Shown one piece after another: positions 7,394-29,100 of a stretch of 32,341 bases of DNA. The DNA comes from Treponema sp. GTDB lineage: Bacteria; Spirochaetota; Spirochaetia; Treponematales; Breznakiellaceae. The stretch lies in assembly GCA_009781475.1 (NCBI GenBank), contig WQYB01000025.1:1-32341 (forward strand), given 5' to 3'. How positions within the stretch are numbered: position 1 is the stretch's first letter; every line of letters begins with the position of its first letter. A program made the translations under genes and the position numbers. The notes under the pieces were generated by a model, which saw only the letters and a list, made by a program, of their open reading frames with translations, ran no database searches and was not told the origin of the DNA.

Positions 7394-8108
7394 AAGATAT
7401 ACAAGGCAGATACAGATACCGCAGATTGGAAATGAAGGACAAAAAAAACTTGGCAGGTCTTCAGTACTTGTGGTGGGTGCTGGAGGATTGGGCTGCCCTA
7501 TCATTACCTATCTTGCTTCAGCCGGTGTCGGCAGAATTGGCATCGCAGATTCTGACACTGTAGCTTTAAGCAATCTTAACCGGCAGTTTTTACACAATAC
7601 AAACGACATTGGAAGACCAAAAACAGATTCGGCAAAAGAAAAAATCAGCGGTTTAAACAATGAAATAAAAATTCTAACCTTTGCCGAACACTTAAACGAA
7701 ACTAATGCCTCGAACATTATAAACGGATACGATATTGTTCTTGGCGCTGTTGATTCTTTTGAAACCCGCTTTATAATTAACAAAACTTGTGTAAAACTTT
7801 CCATACCGTATATTGACGGCGGCATAAACGGTTTTTGCGGCAGTATATTTTTTTCAAATCCGCCGCTTACGCCGTGTTTAAATTGTATTTATCCGCAAAC
7901 TCCGGCAAAAAAAGAAGTACCAGACACAACCAGTGCACTTGGTACTACAGCAGGGGTTACAGGAACAATCGAGGCAAATATTGCTTTAATTTATTTACTG
8001 GGTTTGCCAAATCCGGCGTTTAATAAACTTTTATTATATGACGGATTTCGTATGATTATCGATCATATCGAAATAAAACAAAACGAAAGCTGTCTTGTTT
8101 GTAATTAA
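7386..8108 (+). CDS. MoeB/ThiF-family adenylyltransferase for the AOR cofactor pathway, lacking the usual Cys
   Basis: The 240-aa product is an E1-like enzyme that would adenylate the C-terminus of a MoaD-type protein. It has the nucleotide loop VVGAGGLGCP (about 29-38), D55, the NLNRQF motif (63-68) and both zinc CxxC pairs (C164/C167 and C236/C239). In MoeB/ThiF relatives a Cys sits shortly after the first zinc pair (TCVEAGV-like). Here the stretch is VPDTTSALGTTAGVTG with Thr/Thr/Ser and no Cys. The start is a GTG at 7386, supported by GAGG about 10 nt upstream and by frame, since the nearby ATG at 7390 is out of frame. It overlaps the AOR stop by 8 bp and is followed after 16 bp by a MoaD-like gene. 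The pair is therefore dedicated to tungstopterin synthesis or sulphur transfer for this AOR (inference; aor operons elsewhere carry similar genes). Confidence 0.88.
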   Translation: MNERYTRQIQIPQIGNEGQKKLGRSSVLVVGAGGLGCPIITYLASAGVGRIGIADSDTVALSNLNRQFLHNTNDIGRPKTDSAKEKISGLNNEIKILTFAEHLNETNASNIINGYDIVLGAVDSFETRFIINKTCVKLSIPYIDGGINGFCGSIFFSNPPLTPCLNCIYPQTPAKKEVPDTTSALGTTAGVTGTIEANIALIYLLGLPNPAFNKLLLYDGFRMIIDHIEIKQNESCLVCN

Positions 8109-13167: not shown

Positions 13168-15492
13168 TTATTTATTTACAATAGAAGAAATTTTATCGAC
13201 AATTTCAGAATAATTCATTTGATCTACATTTTCACGCAGCCAAGAAGCAAGATTATCGTCTTCTTCATAATCAAAAACTTCTATTTCATTCATGATTCTT
13301 TCTATTTCTTCGATGGCAAAAGATCCGCATGCCGCACACAAATTACGCAGCGCTTCGGAATACGGTTTATCTTTTTTAAGTTTCGTAATAATTTTATCTT
13401 CATCTTCTTTAAATATATCATCTAAATCATCGGTTAGTCCTGTAATTACATCCAGTAAAACCTGATTGTGCTCTAGTACAAATTTTAAATCTCCTGCTTT
13501 GGCGGCTTTTTCAAGCGCTTCTGCCTGATTCCCTGCAGCTTCAGCCGAAATACCGCGGCATGAACTTTTTACTCCGTGTACTATAATCGCATATTCAGCC
13601 AAATTTTCATCATTCACTTCTTTCATTGAATTGATAACAGATCGTGTATTCACTGCAAATGATTTTAATATTTGCAAAAATGTATCCCAATCGCCGCCGA
13701 AACGTTCCAAACCTTTATTGATATTTATCCCTTCAATTTTTTTTGCCAGCAATCGCCTGTCATATCCTCTCCTTCTGTCTCCTTTATCCGATCGCCTGTC
13801 TTCCCCTGTACGTCCGTCAAAAATGGATTCACCGTCAACAATAATTTGCTTGTCTTTTATATTTTTCTCTATTTCTTCATCACGTACCCATTGATTGACA
13901 ATAACGTCAAGACGCTGGACATCTACAGGTTTTGTAATAACTGCCTGGAAACCTTTACTTAAAAACATTTCTTCATTACCGGCAAGAGCGTTTGCAGTAA
14001 AAGCGATTATCGGCACATTTTTGGCATAATCAGTTCCGATTTCTTCACGGATAATTCTTGTAGCTTCAATCCCGTTCATAATCGGCATCATATGATCCAT
14101 AAATATGGTGTTGTATTTAACTTCATTGTTACGGACAGCGTCAACTGCCGCCTGCCCGCTTGTTACGCAATCAACCTCCATTCTGTACGGCTTTAACATT
14201 CCTTTGGCGACATCTAAATTTGTAAGCACGTCATCAACAATAAGCACTCTTGCGTAAGGAAGAATGATTCTTGAAACCCGGGAAAAAGAATTAAACTTTC
14301 TTGATTTATAATGAAAATTTTTAAGATTTTGTATAATATCAGGTGCAATAAGTTTATTATTAACAGCCTTTTGCGGCAGTTTAACGGTAAAAACACTTCC
14401 TTTGCCGTATTCGCTTTTTACAAATATTTTTCCGCTCATTGTTTCTGTTAATGTTTTTGTAATTGAAAGTCCAAGACCTGTTCCTTTAATTTCCCTGTTT
14501 GTCAGCAAATCTATCTGTGAATAATCGGAAAATAAAGCGCCTACATTTTCCTGCGATATTCCAATACCTGTATCACTGACAGAAGCGGAAAAATAAAATG
14601 TATTGTCTTCTCCTTGTTCAAAATTAATGCTTAATTCAACTGTTCCTTCTTTTGTATATTTAAATGCATTTGATAAAAGGTTATTTAAAATTTGTTTTAT
14701 CCTAAGATCATCACCGTATAAAAAAGCCGGAATATTATCTGCAATATTTAATACAAATTCGATGGGTTTTTCATTTTTATACATTATGCTTTGATTGATT
14801 GTATCGCCGATCATTCCGGCAGTATCATATTCTACAGGTACAAGCTCAAATCTTCCTTCCTCGATTTTTGAAATATCCAAAATATCATTAACAATACCCA
14901 AAAGGGAATCTCCGGCATTACATACCTTTTCGATATTTTCACGTACGCTTTCAGTTAAGCTGTCATCCTCTAAAGTCAGTTCCGACAAGCCAATTACAGC
15001 ATTTAAGGGGGTACGCATTTCGTGGCTCATTTTGGCAAAAAACTTGTTCTTTTCTTCCGCCGCTGCTACAATAGCCTGAATTTGAGCGTATCTTTCAAGT
15101 GCTCTAATTTGATTGATTATCTGTATTTGATTTCGAACCCTGGATTTGACAACTTTGGCGCTAAAGGGCTTGTGTATAAAATCGGCGGCATCAAGAGCAA
15201 GCCCTTTTTCCTCGTCTTCTACGCTTTCAAGCCCTGTAATAATAATTACGGGAATATCACAAGTTTTTTCTGATGTTTTTAATATCGAAAGGACATCAAA
15301 ACCATTCATATCCGGCATGATAATATCAAGAAGGATTAAATCGGGTTGGAAATTATTAGCCATATCAATGCCGGAAGAGCCGCTTTTTGTCATTAAAACG
15401 GTATATTCAGAGTTTAATATATTATTTAGAACTTCTAGATTAAATCTTTCATCATCGATTATAAGTACACTATTTTTATCAGAATTTTCCAT
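13168..15492 (-). CDS. Soluble hybrid histidine kinase: REC-HisKA-HATPase-REC-Hpt
   Basis: The 774-aa product has no signal or membrane segment. Order: receiver 1 (1-125, Asp56), a short coiled coil, HisKA with MSHEMRTPLNAVIG (His157), HATPase with NLLSNAFKYT (N box), DTGIGI and GTGLGL, receiver 2 (415-535, Asp466 in MDHMMP), a charged Arg-rich linker (560-582), and Hpt with HGVKSS (His639). A last helical segment (about 705-774) resembles the C-terminal module of two other kinases in the window. Because the input receiver replaces a sensor domain, it probably reads signals from another kinase or from the lipoprotein/symporter pair encoded immediately downstream. Upstream is GGGG 8 nt before the ATG. 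The start region is shared with the divergent receiver/hydrogenase-sensor operon. Confidence 0.93.
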   Translation of the reverse strand: MENSDKNSVLIIDDERFNLEVLNNILNSEYTVLMTKSGSSGIDMANNFQPDLILLDIIMPDMNGFDVLSILKTSEKTCDIPVIIITGLESVEDEEKGLALDAADFIHKPFSAKVVKSRVRNQIQIINQIRALERYAQIQAIVAAAEEKNKFFAKMSHEMRTPLNAVIGLSELTLEDDSLTESVRENIEKVCNAGDSLLGIVNDILDISKIEEGRFELVPVEYDTAGMIGDTINQSIMYKNEKPIEFVLNIADNIPAFLYGDDLRIKQILNNLLSNAFKYTKEGTVELSINFEQGEDNTFYFSASVSDTGIGISQENVGALFSDYSQIDLLTNREIKGTGLGLSITKTLTETMSGKIFVKSEYGKGSVFTVKLPQKAVNNKLIAPDIIQNLKNFHYKSRKFNSFSRVSRIILPYARVLIVDDVLTNLDVAKGMLKPYRMEVDCVTSGQAAVDAVRNNEVKYNTIFMDHMMPIMNGIEATRIIREEIGTDYAKNVPIIAFTANALAGNEEMFLSKGFQAVITKPVDVQRLDVIVNQWVRDEEIEKNIKDKQIIVDGESIFDGRTGEDRRSDKGDRRRGYDRRLLAKKIEGININKGLERFGGDWDTFLQILKSFAVNTRSVINSMKEVNDENLAEYAIIVHGVKSSCRGISAEAAGNQAEALEKAAKAGDLKFVLEHNQVLLDVITGLTDDLDDIFKEDEDKIITKLKKDKPYSEALRNLCAACGSFAIEEIERIMNEIEVFDYEEDDNLASWLRENVDQMNYSEIVDKISSIVNK

Positions 15493-15574: not shown

Positions 15575-15603
15575 TTGATTTTTTATTGATTTTATAGTAT
15601 AAT
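15575..15603 (+). promoter_or_regulatory. Promoter of the CheY-like / hydrogenase-sensor operon
   Basis: TTGATT (15575-15580) and a perfect TATAAT (15598-15603) are separated by exactly 17 bp. Transcription would start near 15610, giving a leader of about 56 nt. The leader opens with a short stem (TGGGGG at 15613-15618 with TCCCCA at 15632-15637) followed by no T-run, so it is not a terminator and may be a 5' stabiliser. GGAG (15658-15661) is the ribosome site. Confidence 0.65.
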
Positions 15604-15665: not shown

Positions 15666-16043
15666 ATGGCGCATAAAAAGGTAATTTTGGCAATTGATGA
15701 CAATGTTCAGCAGCTCAGTGAATATAAAAACATGCTGAGTTCAAATTATGATCTTAGGGTTGTAAAATCCGCTTCTGAAGCCATAGCTTTTTTAAATAGA
15801 GAAATTGCGGATATAGTTCTTTTAGATATAGAAATGCCCAATATTTCAGGTTTTGAATTTTTGGATGACATTAAAAAAATTCCAAGTTATTTAAATGTAC
15901 CCATTTTAATCGTTAGCGGAAACAGCGACCAGGAATTCATGCAAAAAGCAAAAAATTCCAAGGCTGTAAATACTTTTACAAAACCTGTTAACCCGGATAA
16001 ATTGATAGATGCAATAAATAAAGCTCTTTCAGCTACCACTTAA
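15666..16043 (+). CDS. CheY-like single-domain response regulator
   Basis: The 125-aa product is a receiver domain only. It has the acidic pair DD (11-12), phosphoacceptor Asp54 (VLLDIEMPN), a Ser in SGNS at the Thr/Ser position, and the conserved Lys in TFTKPV. There is no output domain. It lies 20 bp upstream of the hydrogenase-like chemoreceptor and shares its promoter, so it is probably the dedicated phosphate acceptor or adaptation partner of that receptor or of a kinase it controls. It could equally take phosphate from the Hpt proteins encoded on either side. Fold and phosphosite are certain; partner is inferred. Confidence 0.93.
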   Translation: MAHKKVILAIDDNVQQLSEYKNMLSSNYDLRVVKSASEAIAFLNREIADIVLLDIEMPNISGFEFLDDIKKIPSYLNVPILIVSGNSDQEFMQKAKNSKAVNTFTKPVNPDKLIDAINKALSATT

Positions 16044-16063
16044 AATTAAAATAGGAGAAAAAT

Positions 16064-18214
16064 ATGAGCAGCTCGGTAAAACAAGCGCCTGTAATTGATA
16101 TAGTTTTAGAAAAATGCATTAACTGTTATGCATGTATATCCGCTTGTCCTGTAAAATATTGTATGGATGGTTCGGGAGAAAGACTTACCGTAAATCATGA
16201 TGAATGTATTGGCTGCGGACACTGTGCTGTTATCTGCCATCATGGGGCACGAAAGCCAATTGATGATACCGAGTTATTTTTCCAGGATATTCAAAAGGGC
16301 GAAAAAATTGTTGCTATAGTAGCTCCTGCAATCGCATCTGTTTTTCCCGGCACTTATTTAAACATTAACGGTTATCTTCAATCACTTGGGGTTAGCGCTG
16401 TTTTTGATGTAAGTTTCGGCGCTGAACTTACGGTAATTTCATATATCAATCATATAGAAAAAAATAAACCAAGAGTTGTAATTGCGCAGCCATGCCCTGC
16501 AATCGTAAGTTTTATAGAAATTTATCATCCGGAATTAATACCTTATCTTGCTCCGGCAGACAGCCCGATGCTTCATACCATAAAAATGATCAAGGAATAT
16601 TACAAAAATTTCCGTGATTATAAAGTTGCCGTTATATCACCTTGTATCGCAAAAAAAAGAGAATTTATTGAAACAGGATTAGGCGATTACAATGTTACAA
16701 TGATCGCATTAAAAGAAAAAATTGAAAAGCAAAATATTAATTTATTGGATTTCCCTGCCAATGAATATATGGGAGCTCCTGCAGAACGTGCTGTATCATT
16801 TTCATCTCCCGGCGGCTTACTTGATACTGCTGAACGTTTTATTCCGGGTCTAAGAAGGCTTACAAGAAAAATTGAAGGAACTCATGCCATATATCCTTAT
16901 TTAACCGGAATGGCAGAAGTAATGAATGATCCAAATATTGAATTTCCTCTGCTTATAGACTGCTTAAATTGCGAATTTGGCTGTAATGGAGGACCGGGAA
17001 CAGGAAACAGTCATAGTAATATGGACGCGCTTGAAAGCCCGATTCGAAAACGCAGCGCCATGCTGGAAAAACAGCTGAATCCCAAAAAACAGGAATCATT
17101 ATATAAAAAATATCATAAAAGGTTAAAACGTTTTTGGAAAAACGGTCTTTATGATCGAAAATATAAAAATTTGTCGGCAAATTATATTGTTAAGCAGCCT
17201 AACGAAAGGGAATTAAATGAAGTTTATCTTACCATGAAAAAAACCAGCGCAAGTGACATCATAGACTGTACAGCCTGCGGTTACGGAAGCTGTAAATCTA
17301 TGGCGGTAGCTATATTTAATAAATTGAACATAACCGATAACTGCGCTCATTACAACATGGCGCTTTTGGAAGATGAGAAAAAAACAACAATTTACATTAA
17401 CAACCAATTGGGCGGACATATAAAACGGGCTTTGGATATAATTGAAAACATACACGATCTTGTTGAACGGTTAAATGAAAGAATCAATATACAATCGGAT
17501 GCTGTAACAAGCTCTTCTGCCATTACAGATGAAATGGTGCACTCTTTAAAATCTACTTCCGATCTTTCAAAACAAAAACGTGAAGCTGTTAAGGAAATGA
17601 TCGAAAATGCCGCAAGAGGTCAGGAAGCCATGAAAGAAACAGTCGAAGCTGTTCATGGCATTTCAGAATCTGTTGACGGAATTGGATCTGCAATCAAGAT
17701 TATCAGTCAAATTGCATCTAACACAAACCTGCTTTCCATGAATGCCGCAATAGAAGCCGCTCATGCAGGAGAAGCCGGCAAAGGCTTCGCTGTAGTAGCC
17801 GATGAAATCAGGCGTCTTTCAGAATCTACAAGGCAGAATTCAAGGACTATCTCCCAAACGCTTTCTGATATTATTTCAGGAATCACGACAACTTCTAAAA
17901 GATCGACCGATGCCGGCAGCTTAATTAATCTTATGGCAGGTGAAATTAACAATTTCGCAACTGTAATGTCAGAGTTGATTGATACCTTGTCAGAGTTATC
18001 TGCAAAAAGTTCTGATATAACAAATTCGCTTGATACATTAAAAGAACACAGCTCTTCCGTAAAAACGGATTATACAGAAATGCTTTCGTTAACTGATAAA
18101 ATCAGATACGACATTAACTTCCTTGCAGCTATGTCGGCAGATATTGTTAAAGCGATTGAAAATAAGGACCGGGATTTAATTGCCAAATTAAGCGCAATAG
18201 AAGCAACTTATTAA
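16064..18214 (+). CDS. [FeFe]-hydrogenase-like sensor fused to a methyl-accepting signalling domain (HydS-type soluble chemoreceptor)
   Basis: This 716-aa protein has no membrane segment. In order: two [4Fe-4S] motifs (C18/21/24/28 and C48/51/54/58); an H-cluster domain (about 80-330) with all three signatures, AQPCPAI (Cys144), SPCIAKKREF (Cys194) and DCLNCEFGC (Cys300/303/307); a further Fe-S domain (C402/405/410/427, CTACGYGSC); then coiled coils and a methyl-accepting hairpin around 553-587 (NAAIEAAHAGEAGKGFAVVA). Catalytic hydrogenases have TSCCPGW, whose first Cys relays protons; here that position is Pro, as expected for a sensory rather than turnover enzyme. Hydrogenase-like H2 sensors of this group are known from anaerobes including treponemes. 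It likely reports H2, CO or redox state to the CheA/CheY system or a kinase. AGGAG precedes the ATG. It ends 8 bp from the convergent kinase gene. Confidence 0.92.
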   Translation: MSSSVKQAPVIDIVLEKCINCYACISACPVKYCMDGSGERLTVNHDECIGCGHCAVICHHGARKPIDDTELFFQDIQKGEKIVAIVAPAIASVFPGTYLNINGYLQSLGVSAVFDVSFGAELTVISYINHIEKNKPRVVIAQPCPAIVSFIEIYHPELIPYLAPADSPMLHTIKMIKEYYKNFRDYKVAVISPCIAKKREFIETGLGDYNVTMIALKEKIEKQNINLLDFPANEYMGAPAERAVSFSSPGGLLDTAERFIPGLRRLTRKIEGTHAIYPYLTGMAEVMNDPNIEFPLLIDCLNCEFGCNGGPGTGNSHSNMDALESPIRKRSAMLEKQLNPKKQESLYKKYHKRLKRFWKNGLYDRKYKNLSANYIVKQPNERELNEVYLTMKKTSASDIIDCTACGYGSCKSMAVAIFNKLNITDNCAHYNMALLEDEKKTTIYINNQLGGHIKRALDIIENIHDLVERLNERINIQSDAVTSSSAITDEMVHSLKSTSDLSKQKREAVKEMIENAARGQEAMKETVEAVHGISESVDGIGSAIKIISQIASNTNLLSMNAAIEAAHAGEAGKGFAVVADEIRRLSESTRQNSRTISQTLSDIISGITTTSKRSTDAGSLINLMAGEINNFATVMSELIDTLSELSAKSSDITNSLDTLKEHSSSVKTDYTEMLSLTDKIRYDINFLAAMSADIVKAIENKDRDLIAKLSAIEATY

Positions 18215-18222
18215 TTTTTCAA

Positions 18223-21200
18223 TTAATCCATTCCAAGGTTTTTCTTTAATTTTGATAATGTTGTTACAGCCATTTCAAAATCAAAATCCTCGATTTGAGA
18301 AGCAAGTTCATCTCCTCCGTCAATTCTTCTGATGTCATCAACAAAATTAGAGCAATCAGGGTTACCCATATCAAGCATTGGCTCCAATTTTAAAATCAGC
18401 TGCTTTGCGCTGTCCAAATCCAGTGATACATTTTTACTTACATCCTGCGCCGGAGGCTGTTCATCCATTAAATCCGGAAACTCCTGACTAATTTGCGATA
18501 AAATCAGGTTAAGCTCAGTTTCCAGTAATTTTAGCTGATTTTCATCTGAATTATTTTTTTCGTTTTCAAGACTATGTTCAACATCGGCAGCAGCCTTTTG
18601 AAGGGATTTTTTCCCGATTTGACCTGCGTTACTTTTTAAAGTATGCGCTACCCTGTGCGCTTTTTTAATATCGCCCGATTTAATATTATCCATTATCTGA
18701 GTAAATGAATCTTTACTGCTTTTGACAAATGATAACCTCAGCGATTTCTGGAATTCTACATCTTTTTCAATCAATGGTTTATCCTTTAAATTATTTTGCT
18801 TATCGCCTTCATTAACAGGCGTAAGGTACTTCAATAAACAATGCCATAATTCCTGTGATGTAAACGGTTTTCCTACACAATCATTCATGCCGCTGCGTCT
18901 GTAAATTTCCATATCGTTTGACATTATGTTAGCTGTCATGGCAACAATTGGAATTTTGTTATGCATTAATAATATATGTCTTGCCGCTTCTATGCCGTCC
19001 ATTACAGGCATGTGCATATCCATAAAGATAAGATCAAAGAGTTTTTCGCCTTTTTGAATCCTTTCTTTTACAATATCTACTCCTATTTTACCGTTTTCCG
19101 CTACTACAGTTTTAAGTCCGACGCGGTTTAGATGTTCACAAATTACCTGTTGATTCATAACATTATCTTCACAAAGTAAAATTTCACCTTTAAATGCAGG
19201 TTTTTCTATTTCATTGTATAACATTTTCTTTTCAAAATATACTTCATCAGCAAAATCAATTGTATCAAATGTTATATCAAAACTAAATACAGTGCCGATA
19301 CCGGGTTTACTTTCAACCAAAAGTTTCCCGCCCATTAATTCCACAATGTTTTTGGTAATGGGAAGACCTAGCCCTGTTCCGCCGTATTTACGCGTTGTGC
19401 CGGTTTCAGCCTGAGTAAACGGATCAAATACCTTAACCATCTGTTCGGCAGTCATGCCAATGCCTGTGTCTATTACTTCAAAATGCATTGCAGCTTTTTT
19501 ATCTCTTTTCTCTTTTAATTCCACCAAAAGTTTAACTACACCGGTATTTGTAAATTTTACAGCGTTGGATAACAGATTAACCAAAACCTGACGCAGTCTT
19601 GTAGGATCACCTAACGGTTTCGCTCCAATATTGGGTTCGGCATAAAAGTGCAGCATTATTCCTTTTTCTGCGGCTTTTGGCATAATTAAAGTGCGGCAGC
19701 TTGAAAATAATTCAACCATATCAAACGGAATTCTTTCCAGTTCCATTTTACCTGATTCAATCTTGGAAATATCAAGTATATCGTTAATAATCTGCAACAG
19801 CCATTCGGCATTTTCAAGAATCTTGTCAAGATATACTTTTGTCTTTTGAGAGATTGAATCATCCATCGCAAGTTCTGAAAATCCGATAATACTGTTCATC
19901 GGTGTTCTTATTTCGTGGCTCATGTTCGCAAGGAATGAAGATTTTGAATGAGAAGCGGCAAACGCAGCTTCTTCTACTTCCTTGCGTTTTGTAATATCAC
20001 GGGAAATACCCATAATTCCGATTGTTTTTCCTTCCAGCTTTAAAGGCATTTTAATTGTTTCATAAAGCGGATTTGTTCCGTTAATGCATGGTATATGTTC
20101 TTCCACAGTTATTGTCATTCCGTTGCTGATAACAAGACGATCTTTGTCATTAAACTTCTGCGCTTCTTCCATCGTTATACCAAGACCTTCCTGATCACTT
20201 TTTCCGATAAGATCATCAATAGTTTTTCCGAAATGTTCCAAAAATGTTTTATTGCAATGAAGGAAGTTTAAATCCAAATTTTTTGTAAAAATAAGATCCG
20301 GAATTGAATCAAAAAGCGTAGTTAAAGTGGCTGTTTTAAGCCCAAGTTCGTATGTTTGTTTTTCTACCAGATTTTCCAGCAGCTTCCCTGTCTGTTTGCT
20401 TCTTCCGAAAGAAACAATAACTAAAACCAAAACGCCGAAAAATAAAACTGAAGTAGAAATAAGCAAAGGCATCTGCCTTTTTATAAGTTTACTTTGATAA
20501 TCAAATGTTTTGCTTGTCCATTGATCAGAAATTATTTTTGTATTTACATGAAGCAGCGCTTTTTCGATAATCGAACACAAAACATTTTCATTTTTATTAA
20601 TACCAAATGTTGAATCGTAGGAAAAATCAAACAATAAATTAATTTTATAACCCGTATCTTCCATGTAATGAGTCAAAAATAAAATATCATGGCTGCTTGT
20701 CATAACAACATCCACTTCATCTTTTTTTAAAGCCTTAAAAACCTCGTCTATATTATCGTACTCTGTATAAAAAAGATGATTTGGAAACCATTTATGAAAA
20801 TAATCTGTGTGTGAATAACCTTTAATTAAACCTACTCTTGTATAAAGAATTTCATTTAAAACAACATCATGATAATCTGATTTGGATATTAAAGCTAAAT
20901 TTGCCTTCATTATTGCGATATTCGGCCAAATGAAATGCTCTTCTCTTTCATTTGTATACACTAATTCCGTGATCATGGAAACTTTGCCTTCCTGCACCAT
21001 TTCAACCAAAGTATAAAAATCTGTATTTTCATCATTAACATTTACAAACTTAAGCCCTGTTATTGATTCAATTTTATTCAATACATCAATAGCTATACCT
21101 TGCCATTGTCTTTCCTGAATATTATAAAAACATATTGGATAATTACTGTTTTCAAACGCTACAGGAACAAAAGAAGTATCCCGTATATAAGCTCTTTCTT

Positions 21201-22089
21201 CTTCGGTTAGCTGCAAAAGCAGTTTTGTTTTAATATATTCATGTTCTCCCTGATTATACAGTCTTGTTAAATGGCGCATTCCGCCGTTTTCAATAAACTT
21301 ATCTATAACCGAAATAATTGGTACTAATGCGGGATTTTGTGTACTCAATGAAACAGGAATAAAACTCAATGGATAAAAAGCGTAACTTACTACATCGGGA
21401 TGATCGATAAAAATCGCCTCTATCACGCCGCTGTAAAAAAATGCGTCAATTTCTTCGTTATAAAGAGCATCGTAAATATCGCCGAAATCATCTATAAAAA
21501 CAAGTTCAAATGTTCCCTGTTTTAATTCCGGGTATACTGTTCTAATTGTGGCTGCATTTGTAATAAAGCCGTACCTTATTGGTCTATCTTTTAGTATTTC
21601 ATCAAAATGCCTGCTGCCTGTTATGCGAAAATATTTTATGGGACGAGAGGCTATATTACTTGACATATAATATTTTTCCAGGCGTTCTTCTGTCATTGTT
21701 AATTCGCCGGTAAAAGATATATCCTGTTCTTCCATACCTGTAAGTAAATCATTCCAGTCATATAATTTGGGCTGGAATTTAATACCGAATAATTCTGTCA
21801 GCCACTGGCAGAAAAGCGCAGTAAATCCCCTTATTCCGCCGTCTTCATCTATAAAAGCCTCGGTATTCATTACCATTCCGTATGTAAATGAATCATATTG
21901 TTTTTGCAGCGCTTCAATTGCCTTTTTTTCTTCGTCCGTTATATTCGGAATATTTTTAAATGAATAATAAAATTGGGAATCCTTTCCGTCTTCATTGAAT
22001 CTGTCAGAAAAACCAATAATAAAAACAGTAAAAGCTGCAGCGGCGAAAATAATAATTATTATAAATATTAATTTTAATTTTTCCGGCAA
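18223..22089 (-). CDS. Membrane hybrid histidine kinase with twin SBP_bac_3 sensors: SBP-SBP-TM-PAS-HisKA-HATPase-REC-Hpt
   Basis: The product has 1288 aa. TM1 (7-26) and TM2 (541-561) bracket two tandem periplasmic amino-acid-binding-like domains (about 50-290 and 295-535), each with the short repeat ending L..LT.EE. Inside are a PAS domain (585-700, ending GISRDITKRKE), HisKA (MSHEIRTP, His725), HATPase (NLLSNAVKFT, DTGIGM, GTGLGL), a receiver (Asp1024, MDMHMP) and Hpt (AHTLKSNAG, His1149). A helical tail covers about 1215-1288. It resembles BvgS/EvgS-type sensors. The start is a TTG at 22089, supported by AAGGAG 8-13 nt upstream inside the end of the Hpt gene; the gap to that stop is 2 nt. 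It is a clear paralogue of the kinase upstream (22433-25360), which lacks PAS and Hpt. Confidence 0.94.
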   Translation of the reverse strand: MPEKLKLIFIIIIIFAAAAFTVFIIGFSDRFNEDGKDSQFYYSFKNIPNITDEEKKAIEALQKQYDSFTYGMVMNTEAFIDEDGGIRGFTALFCQWLTELFGIKFQPKLYDWNDLLTGMEEQDISFTGELTMTEERLEKYYMSSNIASRPIKYFRITGSRHFDEILKDRPIRYGFITNAATIRTVYPELKQGTFELVFIDDFGDIYDALYNEEIDAFFYSGVIEAIFIDHPDVVSYAFYPLSFIPVSLSTQNPALVPIISVIDKFIENGGMRHLTRLYNQGEHEYIKTKLLLQLTEEERAYIRDTSFVPVAFENSNYPICFYNIQERQWQGIAIDVLNKIESITGLKFVNVNDENTDFYTLVEMVQEGKVSMITELVYTNEREEHFIWPNIAIMKANLALISKSDYHDVVLNEILYTRVGLIKGYSHTDYFHKWFPNHLFYTEYDNIDEVFKALKKDEVDVVMTSSHDILFLTHYMEDTGYKINLLFDFSYDSTFGINKNENVLCSIIEKALLHVNTKIISDQWTSKTFDYQSKLIKRQMPLLISTSVLFFGVLVLVIVSFGRSKQTGKLLENLVEKQTYELGLKTATLTTLFDSIPDLIFTKNLDLNFLHCNKTFLEHFGKTIDDLIGKSDQEGLGITMEEAQKFNDKDRLVISNGMTITVEEHIPCINGTNPLYETIKMPLKLEGKTIGIMGISRDITKRKEVEEAAFAASHSKSSFLANMSHEIRTPMNSIIGFSELAMDDSISQKTKVYLDKILENAEWLLQIINDILDISKIESGKMELERIPFDMVELFSSCRTLIMPKAAEKGIMLHFYAEPNIGAKPLGDPTRLRQVLVNLLSNAVKFTNTGVVKLLVELKEKRDKKAAMHFEVIDTGIGMTAEQMVKVFDPFTQAETGTTRKYGGTGLGLPITKNIVELMGGKLLVESKPGIGTVFSFDITFDTIDFADEVYFEKKMLYNEIEKPAFKGEILLCEDNVMNQQVICEHLNRVGLKTVVAENGKIGVDIVKERIQKGEKLFDLIFMDMHMPVMDGIEAARHILLMHNKIPIVAMTANIMSNDMEIYRRSGMNDCVGKPFTSQELWHCLLKYLTPVNEGDKQNNLKDKPLIEKDVEFQKSLRLSFVKSSKDSFTQIMDNIKSGDIKKAHRVAHTLKSNAGQIGKKSLQKAAADVEHSLENEKNNSDENQLKLLETELNLILSQISQEFPDLMDEQPPAQDVSKNVSLDLDSAKQLILKLEPMLDMGNPDCSNFVDDIRRIDGGDELASQIEDFDFEMAVTTLSKLKKNLGMD

Positions 22090-22091
22090 AA

Positions 22092-22418
22092 TTACTGCTC
22101 CTTATTAATTATAAGCTCTATTTCATTTAAAGCAATATTTAACTCATCTTCAAGATATTTTAACTGTTCATCTGTTACAGTATTTTTTCCGTCTTTTAAT
22201 ATACATTCAATATTATAAGCCGCTTGTTTAAGATTATTTTTTCCGATTTGTGCGGCATTTCCTTTTATGGAATGTACAAGCCTGTACGCTTCTTTAGTGT
22301 CATCTGATTTAATAATATCAGCTATTTGGCTGAATTTATTGCGGTAATTATTAATAAAATATTTATATAACGCCTGCTGAAAAGCCAAGTCTGCTTCTAA
22401 AAGGGTTTCTTTTTCCAT
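22092..22418 (-). CDS. Stand-alone histidine phosphotransfer (Hpt) protein
   Basis: The 108-aa product is a four-helix Hpt domain with VHSIKGNAAQIG (phosphoacceptor His49) followed by the family's helix pattern. I choose the ATG at 22418 because it has AAAAGGAG directly upstream. An in-frame ATG at 22469 would overlap the kinase gene by 37 nt and has no ribosome site. It lies 14 nt after a hybrid kinase that ends at its receiver domain, and just before a paralogous kinase with a fused Hpt. It most likely completes the phosphorelay of the upstream kinase. Its sequence resembles the fused Hpt (HTLKSNAGQIG), which is consistent with gene fission or fusion. Confidence 0.92.
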   Translation of the reverse strand: MEKETLLEADLAFQQALYKYFINNYRNKFSQIADIIKSDDTKEAYRLVHSIKGNAAQIGKNNLKQAAYNIECILKDGKNTVTDEQLKYLEDELNIALNEIELIINKEQ

Positions 22419-22432
22419 TAATTCTCCTTTTG

Positions 22433-25360
22433 TTACAAAGGTTTTATGTATTTTAAAAGACATCGCCACAGTTCCTGTGAGGTAAACGGTTTGCCAAGGC
22501 AGTCAGGCATACCGCTTATTTTATAAATTTCCATATCTTCAACCATTATGTTAGCCGTCATTGCCACCATCGGAATACCAGTATTCAGTTTGACGATCTC
22601 TGCAGACGCTTCAAAGCCGTCCATAACAGGCATGTGCATATCCATTAATATTAAATCAAAAAGTTTTTCTTTTTTTAACAGCCGTTCTTTAATAAAATCT
22701 ATGCCTATTTTGCCGTTTTCTGCTATAATCGGTTTAAGCCCCACTCTTGTTAGATGTTCAGTTATTACAAACTGATTCATTTCATTGTCTTCGCAAACCA
22801 ATACTTCCCCTGTAAAAAGCGGTTTTTCTATTTCACTGAAAGCTAATTTTCTTTCTATACGCTCTTCATCAGTCACAGGTATTGTATTAAAAACAAGATC
22901 AAAACTAAACTTGCTTCCTATTCCAAGTGAGCTTTCTACAGAAAGTTTGCCACCCATCATTTCAACTATATTTTTTGTAATTGCAAGTCCCAGTCCTGAC
23001 CCGCCGTATTTACGTGTTGTACCGGTTTCCGCCTGGGCAAAAGGTTCAAATATTTTTTCTATTTGATCTTTTGACATACCTATACCGCTGTCTTTTATTT
23101 CAAAATGCATTGTGATGTTATTTTCTGTCTTTTCGGTAATGGCAGATAAAACTTTTACCATACCGTTTTGTGTAAATTTAACAGCATTGGAAAGAAGGTT
23201 AACAAAAACCTGACGCAGTCTTGTAGGGTCACCCAAAGGTTTTACACCTACGCTTGGTTCGGCATAAAAATGCAGTATTAACCCTTTTTCTACTGCTTTA
23301 GGCATTACCAATGCTCTGCAGCTTGTAAAAATTTCATGAATATCAAACGGAATTATTTCCAGTTCCATTTTACCGGATTCTATTTTTGAAATATCTAAAA
23401 TATCATTGATAATTTGCAATAACCATTCAACATTCATCTGAATTTTTTTCAGATACTCGCTTGTTTTTAAAGAAGTTTCTGAATCTAAAGCAAGCTCAGA
23501 AAATCCCATAATGCTGTTCATGGGGGTGCGTATTTCGTGGCTCATGTTTGCAAGAAAAGCTGATTTTGAATTGTTTGCGGCTTTTGCCGATTCAAGCGCT
23601 TCTTTTAAATCTTTTTGAAATGCACTTAATTCCAAAGTCCGCTCTTTTACCTGTTTTTCCAGCCTTTTGCTTTCATTTATTTTTCTGTATAACAAAAGAA
23701 AAAAGAAAAAAATACATATTATAAATACCGGAATACCGGCTAAAACCGGAAGACGAGCATTGGTAAGTTTTACACGATAATCAAAAGTTCTGCGCATCCA
23801 TTGACCGGAGATTCCTTTTACATCAATGAAGGAAAAAGCTTTATTAATTATTGAACACAATATTTCTTCATTTATATTAAATCCAAAAGTTGAAATTAAA
23901 GTACTGTCAAATACAACATTTGCTTTATAATCCGGAAACCCAAGATAATTTGTAAGATGAAGAAATCCATACTGGGAAGACATTACAACGTCAACTTCGC
24001 CCCGATCTAACGCCTTAAAAGCCTCATTTAAACTTTCGTACTCTATTGTATACTCATGATCCGGAAACCAGATATTAAATAATTCTGCATACGCGGTTCT
24101 GCTTGAAAGACCTACTTTTAATGATAATATTTCATTTAAAGAAATATTCGGATAATCAGATTTTGAAATAAGCGCAAAATAATCCGTTACAATTGCAGTC
24201 TCGGGCCATAAAAATTTTTCTTCCCTGTCTTTTGTGCGGATAAGCTCAGTTACAAAAGAAACTTCACCGTTTTCCAGTATTTGTAACATATCAGACCATT
24301 CAATCCGTTTATTATTATTTACATCCTTAAAAGTTAATCCGGAAATTAATTCGACTTCTTTTAATACATCAATAGCGATTCCCTGCAGCTGCTTTTCCTG
24401 GCTGTTATAAAAACAAACAGGATAATTATCATAATCGGCAGCATATAAAACTACAGGGTTTGCATGCAAATAACTTTTTTGTTCATTGGTAAGCTGTGTA
24501 TAAAATTTATAATTTTGATATTCCCGGTATCCGAGCTTGTTAAGTTCTGTTAAATAACGTAAACCTCCGTTATACAGTGCTTTTTGTAAAATGGTTATAA
24601 CCGGTTCAAGAGATGCTTTCCTTGTTGACATAGAAATTGGATTGTAAATTAACGGGAATACAGCTTCCGAAACAATATCACCGTAAGTATCAAATACAAT
24701 TTCCGTTGAACTGTCATCAAAAAAAGCGTCTGCTACGCCGGTTTTTAAATATTCATAAGCGGTTTCATAATCCCTTATAAAAACCGGCTGAAATTGATTA
24801 AAAGCTCCTGATTCAATAAGCTGATTTTGCGTAACAGAACCGTCAAGAAATAAAAATTGTAAAGGACGTGTTTTTTCAATTTCAGATAGCGGCTGTTTAT
24901 CCTTTATACGATAATGCATTAATGTACGCTGAGTAATAGCGCTTGTCATAAAATAAGTTTCCCGCCGCTTTTCTGTTGGAGTTAAATCACCTGAAAAATC
25001 AATTTCTCCCGTTTCAAGCCCGGTAATTAAATCACCCCATTCAAAAACAGCCGGAATAAATTGTATCCCGAAAAATTCTGTAAGCCACTGGCAAAACAGC
25101 GCGGAAAAACCTCTTACATCATTATCTGCTGAATAAAACGCTTCGGTACTTGGAGTCATACCGTAGATAAAGGATCTCCCTTGACTTTTTAGTTCTTCGA
25201 TTGCTTTAATTTCTTCGCTTGTAATGCCTGGAACCTGCGAATAACAAGTATACGGATTTATTGCTGAATATTTATCTTGCAAAGAAGAATCGCAGGATAA
25301 AAACAGCATTACAAAAATGAAAATGAGAAAAATATATATTTGCCGGCTTCTAATACGCAT
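22433..25360 (-). CDS. Membrane hybrid histidine kinase with twin SBP_bac_3 sensors, no Hpt: SBP-SBP-TM-HisKA-HATPase-REC
   Basis: The product has 975 aa. The N-terminus has a hydrophobic stretch ending LFLSC (Cys23), a possible lipobox, so the sensor may be lipid-anchored as well as spanning the membrane at about 537-558. Two tandem binding-protein-like domains (45-290 and 295-535) are followed by a coiled coil, HisKA (MSHEIRTP, His608), HATPase (NLLSNAVKFT, DSGIGM, GSGLGL) and a receiver (Asp907, MDMHMP), ending right after the domain at KYIKPL. Long near-identical stretches with the 1288-aa kinase (KPLGDPTRLRQV; CEDN-MNQ; KPFTSQELW) show tandem duplication. The missing Hpt is supplied by the next gene. 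AAGGG lies 5 nt before the ATG, and an extended -10 promoter is just upstream. Confidence 0.94.
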   Translation of the reverse strand: MRIRSRQIYIFLIFIFVMLFLSCDSSLQDKYSAINPYTCYSQVPGITSEEIKAIEELKSQGRSFIYGMTPSTEAFYSADNDVRGFSALFCQWLTEFFGIQFIPAVFEWGDLITGLETGEIDFSGDLTPTEKRRETYFMTSAITQRTLMHYRIKDKQPLSEIEKTRPLQFLFLDGSVTQNQLIESGAFNQFQPVFIRDYETAYEYLKTGVADAFFDDSSTEIVFDTYGDIVSEAVFPLIYNPISMSTRKASLEPVITILQKALYNGGLRYLTELNKLGYREYQNYKFYTQLTNEQKSYLHANPVVLYAADYDNYPVCFYNSQEKQLQGIAIDVLKEVELISGLTFKDVNNNKRIEWSDMLQILENGEVSFVTELIRTKDREEKFLWPETAIVTDYFALISKSDYPNISLNEILSLKVGLSSRTAYAELFNIWFPDHEYTIEYESLNEAFKALDRGEVDVVMSSQYGFLHLTNYLGFPDYKANVVFDSTLISTFGFNINEEILCSIINKAFSFIDVKGISGQWMRRTFDYRVKLTNARLPVLAGIPVFIICIFFFFLLLYRKINESKRLEKQVKERTLELSAFQKDLKEALESAKAANNSKSAFLANMSHEIRTPMNSIMGFSELALDSETSLKTSEYLKKIQMNVEWLLQIINDILDISKIESGKMELEIIPFDIHEIFTSCRALVMPKAVEKGLILHFYAEPSVGVKPLGDPTRLRQVFVNLLSNAVKFTQNGMVKVLSAITEKTENNITMHFEIKDSGIGMSKDQIEKIFEPFAQAETGTTRKYGGSGLGLAITKNIVEMMGGKLSVESSLGIGSKFSFDLVFNTIPVTDEERIERKLAFSEIEKPLFTGEVLVCEDNEMNQFVITEHLTRVGLKPIIAENGKIGIDFIKERLLKKEKLFDLILMDMHMPVMDGFEASAEIVKLNTGIPMVAMTANIMVEDMEIYKISGMPDCLGKPFTSQELWRCLLKYIKPL

Positions 25361-25392
25361 CTAAACCCTTCAACATAAGAATGACAAATGCG

Positions 25393-25401
25393 ATTATAAC
25401 A
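25393..25401 (-). promoter_or_regulatory. Extended -10 promoter element of the twin-SBP kinase/Hpt/kinase unit
   Basis: On the minus strand TGTTATAAT (25401-25393) is a perfect extended -10 (TGn plus TATAAT) ending 32 nt before the ATG of the 975-aa kinase. No good -35 is present, which extended -10 promoters tolerate. Confidence 0.5.
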
Positions 25402-25447
25402 CCCAGGAATTTTAAATAGTGAAATAAAACGCACAAATTCTCTTTAA

Positions 25448-25477
25448 ATTGTACCATAGGTGCGAAAGAAAACGCAA
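25448..25477 (-). promoter_or_regulatory. Second candidate promoter upstream of the twin-SBP kinase unit
   Basis: TTGCGT (25477-25472), an 18-bp spacer and TACAAT (25453-25448) on the minus strand lie about 90 nt before the kinase start. Together with the extended -10 closer in, this suggests that the last three genes of the cluster can be expressed without the 7TMR kinase and its receiver. Confidence 0.4.
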
Positions 25478-25497
25478 GATAAATTAATATTGTTTAT

Positions 25498-26127
25498 TTA
25501 ATTATTGGAAAACGCCTTACTGTTTTTTATCAGATCCAACAGGCTTTTAATTCTTTGCTGCGCCCGATCAATATTACCTTCGCTAAGATCATCACGGCTT
25601 TTTGATAACTCTGTCACAGCATTTAAAAGGACATCCTGCAGTGAAAGAGCATTTTGGACTTTTTCATGAACCAGTTTCTGAAGATTATCATTGAAGTCCG
25701 CAAGCTCGACCGATTGTTTTTCCAGTTTCCTTTTTTGATCTTCCATTAAAAGATGCATATCAACACGTTTAACCAGCAAAGAAGGATGAAATGGTTTTGT
25801 AATATAATCAACAGCACCAAGCGAAAGCCCCATAAGCTCTTCATTCGGCTCGGCTTTACCTGTAAGAAAAATAACAGGAATATCCTTGGTTGTTTTTTTA
25901 AATTTAAGTATTTTTATGATTTGGTAACCGTCTACCTCGGGCATATCAATATCCAGAAGAATAATGTCCGGTACATTTGTTTCCAAAAGTTCAAAAAGTT
26001 TAACAGCAGAAGGAGCAGTGGCTACACGTTTGTTGGAAGACAATACATTCATTGCACTTTGCAAGGTAGCAGGGTTATCGTCAACCAAAATAATGAATTT
26101 TTTCTCTAATTCTGTTACTTCATTCAT
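25498..26127 (-). CDS. Response regulator with a truncated HD-GYP-like C-terminal stub
   Basis: The 209-aa product has a receiver domain (about 11-130; DD at 16-17, Asp59 in LLDIDMPEVDG, Lys in YITKPF) and then a coiled coil (130-160). The final 45 residues (VQNALSLQDVLLNAVTELSK, then SRDDLSEGNIDRAQQRIKSL) match the opening helices of HD-GYP cyclic-di-GMP phosphodiesterases, which read LQ...ALAELVE-RD--TG-HI-R. The first metal-binding His position is Asn here and the protein stops before the HD and GYP motifs, so it cannot be an active phosphodiesterase. It starts 4 bp after the 7TMR kinase stop and is its likely partner. It could act through its coiled coil or be a decayed regulator. Confidence 0.88.
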   Translation of the reverse strand: MNEVTELEKKFIILVDDNPATLQSAMNVLSSNKRVATAPSAVKLFELLETNVPDIILLDIDMPEVDGYQIIKILKFKKTTKDIPVIFLTGKAEPNEELMGLSLGAVDYITKPFHPSLLVKRVDMHLLMEDQKRKLEKQSVELADFNDNLQKLVHEKVQNALSLQDVLLNAVTELSKSRDDLSEGNIDRAQQRIKSLLDLIKNSKAFSNN

Positions 26128-26131
26128 GCTT

Positions 26132-29100
26132 TTATCTTAGCATATTTTCGATAATTTGTAAAGCGTTGTCATACTCTGCCATTAATATTTCTGAAGATAT
26201 ATTATTTAACGCTTCAATAACATCTGGTTCAAACGATTTTTGGCTTAAATCATCAATAATAATATTAATATCAGAAGCGGGAGCTTTAGATTTTAACATT
26301 GCAACTAAACCATTGAATAAGGAATGGTAATCTGATATGTTTTCATAATTTTCTTTTGATTCTTTTTCTTCATTATCAAAAGCGATTTTAATATTATTTA
26401 CCAACGACTGTAATTGCTGTGTAAAAACAGACAAATTTTCATTAATATAATCCCTGTCTCCGGCTCTTCCGGCTTTTTCAAGCGATGCTGCAACAGCCGA
26501 CAATTCGCCGGCTCCAATAGTTGCCAAAGCGCTTTTTAAAGCGTGAATATGTGTCGTAAATTCGGCAGAAACAGCTTGAGTATTTTTAGCTTCATCATTG
26601 AATAATAAGAGTCTTTCTTGCGTATCCTTGTATAATATTTTCAGAACCCTGCGGTAACCTGCAAATGTTCCGCCTGTCGCCGCTATACCGGACTTAACAT
26701 TTACACCTGGTATGTCAAAAATTACATCATCGTTCATTTTTTCCTTCTCTTGATTTTTTTTATCAATACTGTTTTTTTCCAGTGCAGCTTGCTTTATTGT
26801 CTGTTCACTTTGCTTTTTATAAATCCATTTTTTCAGTACTTCATCAAATTGAATTATATCTATTGGTTTTGAAACAAAACCGTTAAACCCGTTAGACAAG
26901 AACAATTCAATATTACCAACTAAAGCGTTTGCCGTCAACGCGATTATTGGAATTTGGTTATCATCCGAATATGGTTTATCGGGATATAATTTATTAAATT
27001 GATCTTTTTCCCAATCCCTGATACACGTTACAGTTTCCATGCCATCCATACCGGGCATCATATGATCCATAAAAATTAAGTCATATTTTTTTCCGGATAA
27101 AACTAAATCAATAGCTCCCAAGCCGGAAGTTACTATGTCTACCTGAAGACCATAAGGCTCCAAAAGTCCTTGGGCTACCTGTAAATTTACCGGCATGTCG
27201 TCTACGATTAATACTTTTCCATAAGGCATCCAGGGGCGATCAATATTCATTCTTTTGCTTTCACTTGTATAAAGAAAATCTTTTAAGTTTTTGGCAACAT
27301 CATTTCCTATAGTCTGCATATCAGAAATATATTGAATCAGTTCAATTGTAAAAACAGAACCTTTGCCGTATTCGCTTTCAACATTAATGCTGCCATTCAT
27401 CATTTCTACAAGTTTTTTTGTTATTACAAGACCAAGTCCTGTTCCTTCAATTCGCCGGTTTGCTCTTGTATCAAGCTGGGCGTAATCATAAAATATTTTA
27501 TCAAAATCGCTTTTACGGATTCCAATACCTGTATCACGTACAATGAAACGTAAAAGAACAGTTTTAAAACTATCATGCGGCGTAAGAGCATTTTGCGCTG
27601 CATTATTTTCCCATGTTACATTTAAGGTAATACTTCCTTTATTTGTATATTTAATTGCGTTTGAAAGAACATTATTTAAAATTTGTTTTACCCTAAGTTC
27701 ATCTCCTATAAGTTTAGCCGGGAAATCGCCATTAATTTCCAAATAGAAATTTATATTTTTAGAACCAATACGAACCCTGTTTAAGTTTATAGTATCGTTA
27801 ATCATGGAAGCTGTTTCGTATTCTGCCGAAAAAAGTTCAAATCCGCCCGCTTCTATTTTTGAAATATCCAGAACATCATTAATAATTCCAAGAAGCGTTG
27901 AACCTGACTGGTATATTTGATTAATATTATTTTTGCTTTTTTCCGGCAAGCCGCCCTGAAGTTCAATTTCTGATAAACCTATAATAGCGTTAAGGGGGGT
28001 TCGTATCTCATGGCTCATTGTGGCAAGAAACTGGCTCTTTGCTTTTGAAGCCTGGATTGCTATTCTTGTTTGTTCTCTTAATCCCAAGGTACGTTCCTGC
28101 ACAGTATTTTCCAGTACAACATTTGACTGCTCAAGTCTTTTATACATTCTGCTGAAACGGTTTGATAAAGTAAGAGCAATACCAACATGGAAAACAAATG
28201 TACTGTAAAGAAAAAGCCTCATGGAACTGCGGAAAAGCATAATATCCAGAGCATCGAATAATCCGCATGAATAAACCATAAACGCACCAAAAAGTACATT
28301 GAAAAAAGCGCTTGAAGTATTATTTTCATTATCACGGAGAATATTTTTATTATTGTGTTCTTTAAATGAATGTTTTATTATGCCAACCAAAACAATCAAA
28401 AAATATAAAAGCATGGCGATAAAAAATATATGCATTACTTCATCACCATATTGCGATGTAAAGAAAAATTGCGTTATACCTATAAATAATGCAAATGAAA
28501 AAAATCCCCAGCTTATTTTGGAAACCTTATTACGCCCCATTTGCTCAATAAAAATACAAAGTATGGATATAACCAGAAATATTGAAAAATATTCAAGCCG
28601 AATCGCAATATAAGAATTAGGAATTAAAAAATTAATTGTCCCTTCGGATACGATATAATACACACAGAGCATAAAAGAAAGAATACTGTAATATAGATTA
28701 AATATTTCTTCTCTTTTTCTGATGGAAAGAAAAATTAAAAGATAATAAATACCGGTATATCCAAGAACGCCGCAAAAGAAAAAACGTAAATAGTTGCGGT
28801 GCTGTTTTAAAATAATATTGTAATCATCGATATAATATGGTTCGTTATAATATAATCCGGTGCTGTCATAAGCCGGATCTCCGATTATCCGCATTGCAAG
28901 AGTATTTGTTCCGGGTACAAAAATATCCTTATCAAGCGGAAAATGAATATCCCTCCAGGTACGCCCCTGTTTTATTCTCCCTGCGCTGTCAAGATGCACT
29001 TCCGATCTGACAAGATGTCCGTTTAAAAATATTTCCCAATTTTCTCCGACGCAGCTTAGGAAAATTCCCGGTACTAAAGTTGCGTCATTTTTCATTATTG

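What the first reader, a model, noticed from the sequence alone, without database searches (positions are those of the whole stretch)
15666..18214. Soluble hydrogenase-like chemoreceptor paired with its own CheY-like receiver
The 716-aa protein joins a ferredoxin module, a complete H-cluster domain, a second Fe-S domain (CTACGYGSC) and a methyl-accepting signalling hairpin without any membrane segment. The proton-relay Cys of catalytic enzymes (first C of TSCCPGW) is Pro, so it should bind but not efficiently turn over H2. Co-expression with a single-domain receiver from one good promoter, inside an island of phosphorelay kinases, suggests that H2 or redox state feeds into motility or into this local relay. 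H2-sensing hydrogenase homologues are established; the direct one-operon coupling to a receiver and the surrounding kinases is the part worth testing.
Basis: partly seen in the sequence, partly recalled or inferred. Interest (0 to 1): 0.75.

Follow-up and report, generated by a model that had tools for sequence, protein, structure and literature searches.

The report
Hydrogenase-fold chemoreceptor with partner receiver
A treponeme gene pair encodes a soluble chemotaxis receptor whose sensing head is a hydrogen-binding enzyme fold adapted for sensing, together with a small signalling partner kept next to it in close relatives; receptors of this type had been predicted before, but the fixed partnership, and the receptor's presence in genomes lacking the usual cofactor-building genes, are leads worth testing.

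Summary
Window 16064-18214 encodes two ferredoxin clusters, an [FeFe]-hydrogenase H-domain, a Cx2Cx4Cx16C motif and an MCP hairpin, with no membrane segment; a 125-aa receiver gene lies 20 bp upstream. The three pocket residues that mark sensory enzymes are Pro143, Ser192 and Leu301, invariant in 22 of 22 aligned homologues; Ser and Leu are those of the characterised group D sensor TamHydS. The kind is not new: HydDB listed '[FeFe] C2, chemotactic (putative)' in 2016. What appears new is lineage-specific coupling. The receiver is directly upstream in 10 of 12 genes of one clade and in 0 of 63 other homologues. It lacks CheY's aromatic switch residue. Homologues of the neighbouring sensorless, receiver-first kinase adjoin the receptor in 7 of 11 clade loci. 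The window genome has HydE, HydF and HydG, but 9 of 26 near-complete genomes with the receptor have neither HydE nor HydG, so H2 sensing is likely, not certain. Verdict: a probable H2/redox chemoreceptor, a new variant of a known putative kind.

The parts
15575..15603 (+). sigma-70-like promoter TTGATT-17-TATAAT ahead of the receiver gene
   Evidence: 10 of 12 consensus match; region total not above shuffles
15666..16043 (+). single-domain receiver (125 aa), phospho-acceptor site intact, no aromatic switch residue
   Evidence: PF00072 79.7 bits; alignment of 11 receivers
16064..18214 (+). soluble hydrogenase-fold chemoreceptor (716 aa)
16100..16249 (+). N-terminal 2[4Fe-4S] ferredoxin module (aa 13-62), with an extra invariant Cys33
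   Evidence: Fer4 matches; Cys invariant 22 of 22
16304..16996 (+). [FeFe]-hydrogenase H-domain (aa 81-311): L1 AQPCPAI, L2 SPCIAKK, L3 DCLNCEFGC
   Evidence: PF02906; motif alignment; columns
17267..17344 (+). Cx2Cx4Cx16C Fe-S motif (Cys402, 405, 410, 427) between H-domain and MCP hairpin
   Evidence: sequence; invariant 22 of 22; same spacing as TamHydS (PMC6984386 and PMC8163306 passages)
17588..18088 (+). MCP signalling hairpin (aa 509-675); N-arm in the heptad register of the genome's other MCPs
   Evidence: PF00015; alignment and offset test
13168..15492 (-). divergent hybrid kinase without a recognised sensor domain: REC-HisKA-HATPase-REC, plus an HGVKSS Hpt-like motif at aa 639
   Evidence: Pfam; motif; synteny

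Best explanation
A cytoplasmic chemoreceptor that most likely senses H2, or the cell's ferredoxin/H2 redox balance. The group-D-like H-domain binds H2 at a slow H-cluster. Electrons or strain pass through the ferredoxin clusters and the C-terminal Cx2Cx4Cx16C [4Fe-4S] cluster into the MCP hairpin. The hairpin's N-arm has the heptad register of the genome's other MCPs (and not that of the MCP beside the second CheA), so it should join the CheA / CheW-CheR / CheX arrays and steer swimming (H2- or energy-taxis). The receiver encoded just upstream keeps its phosphorylation site but lacks CheY's aromatic switch. It is therefore more likely a phosphate carrier or sink that links this receptor's CheA output to the divergent sensorless kinase, whose own input domain is a receiver. 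Shown here: domains, residues, gene layout, clade-wide receiver synteny, N-arm register, maturases in this genome. Inferred: H2 as ligand, co-transcription, direction of response, array membership, and every phosphotransfer step.
For: Domains. H-cluster Cys (144, 194, 303, 307) and Lys197 (CpI K358 site, equivalence recalled) invariant in 22 of 22. Pocket Ser192/Leu301 equals Ser/Leu of TamHydS, a protein shown to hold an H-cluster and to work slowly (PMC6984386 and PMC8163306 passages). Same C-terminal Cys spacing as TamHydS. Window genome carries HydE, HydF and HydG on contig C63. Related H-domains are fused to other signalling outputs: histidine kinases in this genome (C50, C93, C96) and elsewhere, PAS-SpoIIE in a Bacteroidales MAG. 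Hairpin N-arm: zero offset from the tip scores best against 13 of 13 other MCPs tested, and +7 against the MCP of the second CheA system (alignment; CheA sets). Receiver 0-42 bp upstream in 10 of 12 clade genes against 0 of 63 others. Homologue of the neighbouring kinase adjacent in 7 of 11 clade loci. Receptor carriage and HydG go together in 58 genomes at least 90% complete (17 of 26 against 9 of 32; Fisher p = 0.008, relatedness not corrected).
Against: 14 of 42 genomes with the receptor (9 of 26 at least 90% complete) have neither HydE nor HydG over cut-off, yet the ligand residues stay invariant in the seven alignment rows that come from such genomes (A1), so conservation does not prove a [2Fe] subcluster. 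The receiver is missing upstream of 65 of 75 homologues (63 outside the clade, 2 inside), so it cannot be essential to the receptor as such. On the hairpin's C-arm zero offset scores best against only 7 of 13 MCPs, and pairwise BLASTP puts 1-20 gap positions in the alignments, so the register claim rests on the N-arm and the multiple alignment. No structure could be predicted. No expression or biochemical data for this family were found in what I read.
Confidence: 0.58

Rival explanations
1. A redox (energy-taxis) receptor that uses the hydrogenase fold only as a scaffold for [4Fe-4S] clusters, without the [2Fe] subcluster, so it does not bind H2. It would read ferredoxin or oxygen/redox state and signal through the same MCP hairpin.
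For: Nine genomes at least 90% complete carry the receptor with neither HydE nor HydG; eight of these nine also lack HydF, and a direct HydG protein query found nothing in any of the nine while hitting 4 of 4 positive controls. Leu at the M497 site went with poor [2Fe] integration in a catalytic enzyme (PMC10055695 part 2).
Against: The window genome has all three maturases. The nine maturase-poor genomes also carry catalytic-type HydA: of the eight whose copies I looked at, six have a copy with all three canonical motifs; the copies looked at in G061 and G070 have TSCSP in place of TSCCP. So the lack is not specific to the receptor. Ala87-Pro88, Lys197 and Ser167-Pro168 of the pocket are invariant. 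TamHydS has Leu at that site and holds the cluster.
Confidence: 0.25
2. The receptor works in a non-motility local circuit: its receiver and the neighbouring hybrid kinases form a phosphorelay that controls gene expression, and chemotaxis is not the main output.
For: Receiver without aromatic switch; receiver-first kinase without a recognised sensor, conserved nearby; further hybrid kinases and an Hpt protein in the window; three hydrogenase-domain hybrid kinases elsewhere in the genome.
Against: MCPs act through CheA and CheW (recalled), and the hairpin N-arm register matches the MCPs other than that of the second CheA system. 65 of 75 homologues lack the receiver.
Confidence: 0.2
3. An active hydrogenase that happens to be fused to an MCP domain, with catalysis as its main role.
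For: All four H-cluster cysteines are kept.
Against: All three residues altered in sensory enzymes are altered here; a separate HydA with canonical motifs exists in the genome; the L2-L3 region is 40-45 residues shorter than in three catalytic HydA.
Confidence: 0.04

Closest known systems
HydDB [FeFe] group C2, 'Chemotactic (putative)'
   Same: Sensory-type [FeFe] hydrogenase tied to methyl-accepting chemotaxis proteins; proposed H2 sensing (PMC5037454 table passage).
   Different: No dedicated receiver or kinase partner is mentioned in the passages seen; the HydDB classifier could not be run here, so the C2 label is not confirmed for this protein.
TamHydS, group D (M2e) sensory [FeFe] hydrogenase of Thermoanaerobacter mathranii
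   Same: N-terminal cluster motifs, H-domain with Ser at M353 and Leu at M497, lost proton-relay Cys, C-terminal Cx2Cx4Cx16C (passages).
   Different: TamHydS has no PAS or other fused signalling domain in the passages seen; here an MCP hairpin follows the C-terminal cluster.
TmHydS, group C (M2f) sensory [FeFe] hydrogenase of Thermotoga maritima
   Same: Slow, sensory H-domain with an extra C-terminal cluster and a signalling domain.
   Different: PAS instead of MCP; pocket Ala131, Gly177, Ser267 instead of Pro, Ser, Leu.
Treponeme H2 sensors of Ballor, Paulsen and Leadbetter 2012
   Different: Paper not looked up or read; whether it describes MCP fusions is unknown to me.
CheY
   Same: Stand-alone receiver with acidic pair, phospho-Asp, Ser and Lys.
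   Different: No aromatic residue three places before the Lys in 11 of 11 aligned; gene sits with a receptor, not in the cheA cluster on C89.

Membership tests
HydDB [FeFe] group C2 (chemotactic, putative) | Sensory-type H-domain linked to an MCP | tested here: met
   PF02906 and PF00015 in one chain; all three sensory substitutions
HydDB [FeFe] group C2 (chemotactic, putative) | Assignment by the HydDB k-NN classifier and reference sequences | not testable with these tools
   HydDB not on hand; no named group C or D reference sequence was obtained
Group D (M2e) sensory hydrogenase | Ser at M353 and Leu at M497, no Cys at C299 | tested here: met
   Ser192, Leu301, Pro143, each 22 of 22; TamHydS residues from PMC8163306
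Group D (M2e) sensory hydrogenase | C-terminal Cx2Cx4Cx16C motif | tested here: met
   Cys402-405-410-427
Group D (M2e) sensory hydrogenase | No fused signalling domain | tested here: not met
   MCP hairpin fused; hence called group-D-like, not filed as group D
Group D (M2e) sensory hydrogenase | Falls with M2e enzymes in a tree | not tested
   no M2e reference sequence was obtained
H-cluster-binding [FeFe] hydrogenase | Four Cys ligands of the H-cluster | tested here: met
   Cys144, 194, 303, 307, 22 of 22
H-cluster-binding [FeFe] hydrogenase | HydE, HydF, HydG encoded in the same genome | tested here: inconclusive
   present in the window genome; neither HydE nor HydG in 14 of 42 genomes with the receptor
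H-cluster-binding [FeFe] hydrogenase | Spectroscopic H-cluster, H2 binding | not testable with these tools
   bench work
CheY (motor-binding) | Aromatic switch residue at the CheY Tyr106 position | tested here: not met
   Thr in the window, Val in the other 10 receivers; residue number recalled
MCP of the main (CheA / CheW-CheR / CheX) array | Same heptad register as the genome's other MCPs | tested here: inconclusive
   N-arm: zero offset best in 13 of 13; C-arm: in 7 of 13. No 7-residue gaps against these 13 in the multiple alignment; such gaps against the C43 MCP. Four of the 19 PF00015 hits were not compared

The most novel reading that the evidence does not exclude
Treponematales use a hydrogenase-fold chemoreceptor family that works without the HydEFG-made [2Fe] subcluster, or with one made by an unknown route: near-complete genomes keep every ligand residue of the receptor (and mostly a canonical HydA) but have no detectable HydE, HydF or HydG. 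In one clade the receptor has acquired a private receiver and a receiver-gated kinase, giving a two-output H2/redox circuit (motility and phosphorelay).
Probability: 0.25. Interest if true: 0.78.

Novelty: new variant of a known kind. Interest (0 to 1): 0.52.

Why it matters
No [FeFe]-hydrogenase chemoreceptor had been tested in anything I read; group C2 is 'putative, undetermined role' in HydDB. This gene set gives a compact system in which H2 or redox input, CheA output and a private receiver can be assayed together. The absence of HydE, HydF and HydG in many treponemes that keep HydA and the receptor turns 'does this fold need the H-cluster to sense?' into a direct test.

Tried and rejected
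Rejected: an active catalytic hydrogenase (sensory pocket, shortened L2-L3 region); a conventional CheY (no aromatic switch); chance adjacency of the receiver (10 of 12 in clade, 0 of 63 outside); membrane receptor (no hydrophobic segment). My first thought that absent HydG proves a [4Fe-4S]-only receptor was dropped as a firm claim: 23 of 50 genomes at least 90% complete with catalytic-type HydA also lack HydE and HydG, so the lack is not specific to the receptor.

Led nowhere: structure prediction (switched off), so no fold search; a direct comparison with TmHydS and TamHydS sequences (not obtained; only residues quoted in papers were used). The PDB search (67 matches, 60 shown) listed hydrogenases, MCPs and ferredoxins and no fusion by name. 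Literature searches on hydrogenase-linked chemoreceptors, sensory hydrogenases or H2-taxis: among the papers I opened, MCP-linked hydrogenases came up only in HydDB and in an acetogen survey that discarded its C2 hits (passages). Searches on hydrogenases lacking maturases listed no title on treponemes without HydEFG; I opened none of the papers listed, and of those listed only PMC9431212, for another question. Statements that something is not in print rest on these searches alone. Papers opened as passages without use in the argument: PMC6776011, PMC4070709, PMC13067680, PMC12483993.

Dropped rows and own choices: genes were collapsed when their first 300 aa were identical, frames without both ends of the receptor were left out, and 6 of 81 rows (one a duplicate of the window gene) had under 450 bp upstream and were not counted. 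One search used tables transcribed by hand, with 500 bits (receptor) and 250 bits (catalytic HydA) as my thresholds; sub-threshold fragments count as absent there (HydG pieces in G016 and G085; a contig-edge piece in G027, which is one of the 14 but not of the 9). The tree is a quick one; the receiver clade has SH-aLRT 85. An earlier count said HydF was missing in 11 of 12 such genomes; the right count is 12 of 13.

Full report
What is there. The window is the whole of contig C25 of a 216-contig, 93% complete genome. It holds a 125-aa receiver gene (15666-16043) and, 20 bp on, a 716-aa gene (16064-18214) on the same strand. The second protein reads, from the N-terminus: two [4Fe-4S] ferredoxin motifs, an [FeFe]-hydrogenase H-domain, a Cx2Cx4Cx16C motif and an MCP signalling hairpin. 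Hydropathy shows no membrane segment. The spacing and the lack of a terminator-like site fit one transcript, but no expression data were available, and promoter-like matches in the region are no more numerous than in shuffles.

The H-domain is of the sensory type. Aligned with the genome's own catalytic HydA, the proton-relay Cys is Pro143, the M353 site is Ser192 and the M497 site is Leu301. All three are invariant in 22 of 22 receptor homologues, as are the four H-cluster cysteines, Lys197, the eight ferredoxin and the four C-terminal cysteines; two more cysteines, 33 and 300, are also invariant. Chongdar et al. 2023 (PMC10055695, parts 1 and 2 of 6 read) say these three sites are the ones altered in sensory enzymes, with Pro in about 10% at C299 and Ser in about 32% at M353. 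Land et al. 2020 (PMC8163306, passages) give Leu at M497 and Ser at M353 in the group D enzyme TamHydS, and the same C-terminal motif. So the sensing head looks like group D, while the MCP output is what HydDB calls group C2, 'chemotactic (putative)' (PMC5037454, table passage). The C-terminal cluster domain is described as a unifying feature of groups C and D whose role in signalling was proposed but untested (PMC13104023, passages). Here it lies between the H-domain and the MCP hairpin, which makes it the natural relay (inference).

Distribution. Of 98 genomes searched (own included), 42 have a match of 500 bits or more (list). A scan of named genomes, capped at the best 80 loci, found H-domain plus MCP outside spirochaetes too, for example in Auribacterota, Ignavibacteriota, Fibrobacterota, Verrucomicrobiota, Planctomycetota and Bacteroidota MAGs. 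Related heads are fused to histidine kinases (three in this genome, on C50, C93 and C96; others in G042, G048 and a Sedimentisphaerales MAG) and to PAS-SpoIIE in a Bacteroidales MAG, so the head is a module that changes outputs.

The receiver. In a tree of 97 head-domain rows the window gene falls in a clade of 12 distinct genes. Ten have a homologous receiver 0-42 bp upstream on the same strand; the two without are both in genome G019. One (L149) has a second receiver just downstream. Among the other 63 genes with at least 450 bp upstream, none has one upstream; one (L117) has a weak receiver match downstream. A homologue of the 774-aa kinase that is divergent in the window is a neighbour in 7 of 11 clade loci examined, the window included: five near full length and divergent (56-78% identity in the relatives), two (G007, G005) on the other side, alike over about 620 residues only. 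That kinase has no recognised sensor domain and starts with a receiver (the same in the G013 copy), with an HGVKSS Hpt-like motif near its end; Pfam reported no Hpt domain in it. The receivers keep the acidic pair, the phospho-Asp, Ser and Lys, but have Val (10) or Thr (window) where CheY has its aromatic switch (the CheY position is recalled). I read this as a phospho-acceptor or sink shared between CheA and the kinase, not a motor-binding CheY. This is inference.

Chemotaxis context. The genome has 19 PF00015 hits and two CheA: one with a CheW-CheR fusion and CheX on C89, one with CheW and its own MCP on C43. In a multiple alignment with 14 other MCPs the receptor hairpin has no 7-residue gaps against 13; the C43 MCP has such gaps on both arms. 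In an ungapped test anchored at the tip, zero offset is best on the N-arm against 13 of 13, and +7 against the C43 MCP; on the C-arm zero offset is best against only 7 of 13, and the C43 result is not clear-cut. Pairwise BLASTP alignments hold 1-20 gap positions. The receptor is therefore expected to join the C89 set, on N-arm evidence. Four further hits were not compared.

H-cluster supply. HydE, HydF and HydG lie together on C63 of this genome. Against a simple H2-sensor story, 14 of 42 genomes with the receptor have neither HydE nor HydG over cut-off; among genomes at least 90% complete it is 9 of 26. HydF was sought in 17 genomes: 12 had no match at E <= 1e-40, among them 8 of those 9 (G061 has HydF). 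A HydG protein query found nothing in the 13 presumed-negative genomes and hit 4 of 4 positive controls. These genomes are not hydrogenase-free: 23 of 50 genomes at least 90% complete with catalytic-type HydA lack both HydE and HydG, including three single-contig genomes whose HydA keeps the canonical motifs. Of the nine receptor genomes I looked at HydA copies in eight: six have a TSCCP copy with canonical L2 and L3, while the copies looked at in G061 and G070 read TSCSP. Receptor carriage and HydG are positively associated in the 58 genomes at least 90% complete (17 of 26 against 9 of 32; Fisher p = 0.008, relatedness not corrected). So H-cluster use is favoured in this genome, while in other lineages either the fold senses without it or the cluster is made another way.

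Verdict. It is a new variant of a known, still putative kind: a group-D-like head, MCP output, and a lineage-specific private receiver and receiver-first kinase.

Noticed in passing
genomes G060, G063, G092 (L085-L088) and 20 others listed: Treponematales genomes at least 90% complete with catalytic-type HydA but neither HydE nor HydG over cut-off (23 of 50); HydA of G060, G063 and G092 keeps canonical L1-L3 motifs.
   Followed up: partly
L062, L063, L090, L092, L095, L096: Several HydA copies in maturase-poor genomes read TSCSPGW instead of TSCCPxW at L1, with MPCTAKK and E(V/I)MTCPGGC kept.
   Followed up: no
L149:3595-6560: Receptor gene flanked by a receiver gene on each side, both homologous to the window receiver.
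   Followed up: no
G000:C50, C93, C96 (L042, L043, L044): Three hydrogenase-domain hybrid histidine kinases in the same genome (Fer4, H-domain, HisKA, HATPase, receiver; Hpt in two, PAS in one).
   Followed up: partly
L140:1603-5388 and L147:3977-7777: Bacteroidales proteins of about 1260 aa with a relative of this H-domain; L140 carries PAS repeats and a SpoIIE phosphatase domain (L147 not scanned).
   Followed up: partly
G000:C89 (L204): The cheA - cheW/cheR - cheX cluster is not followed by a recognisable cheY; the next ORFs, by eye, look like a nucleotidyltransferase/HEPN-type pair.
   Followed up: no
window 5221-8108: Poly-ferredoxin, aldehyde:ferredoxin oxidoreductase and MoeB/ThiF-like genes in a row: another ferredoxin-linked gene set in the window.
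   Followed up: no
window 18223-29458: Minus-strand run: a 1288-aa hybrid kinase with SBP_bac_3 heads, a 125-aa Hpt protein and a 209-aa receiver protein, plus 975-aa and 1108-aa ORFs that look like hybrid kinases by eye; best matches to the 1288-aa kinase lie near the receptor in four relatives.
   Followed up: partly
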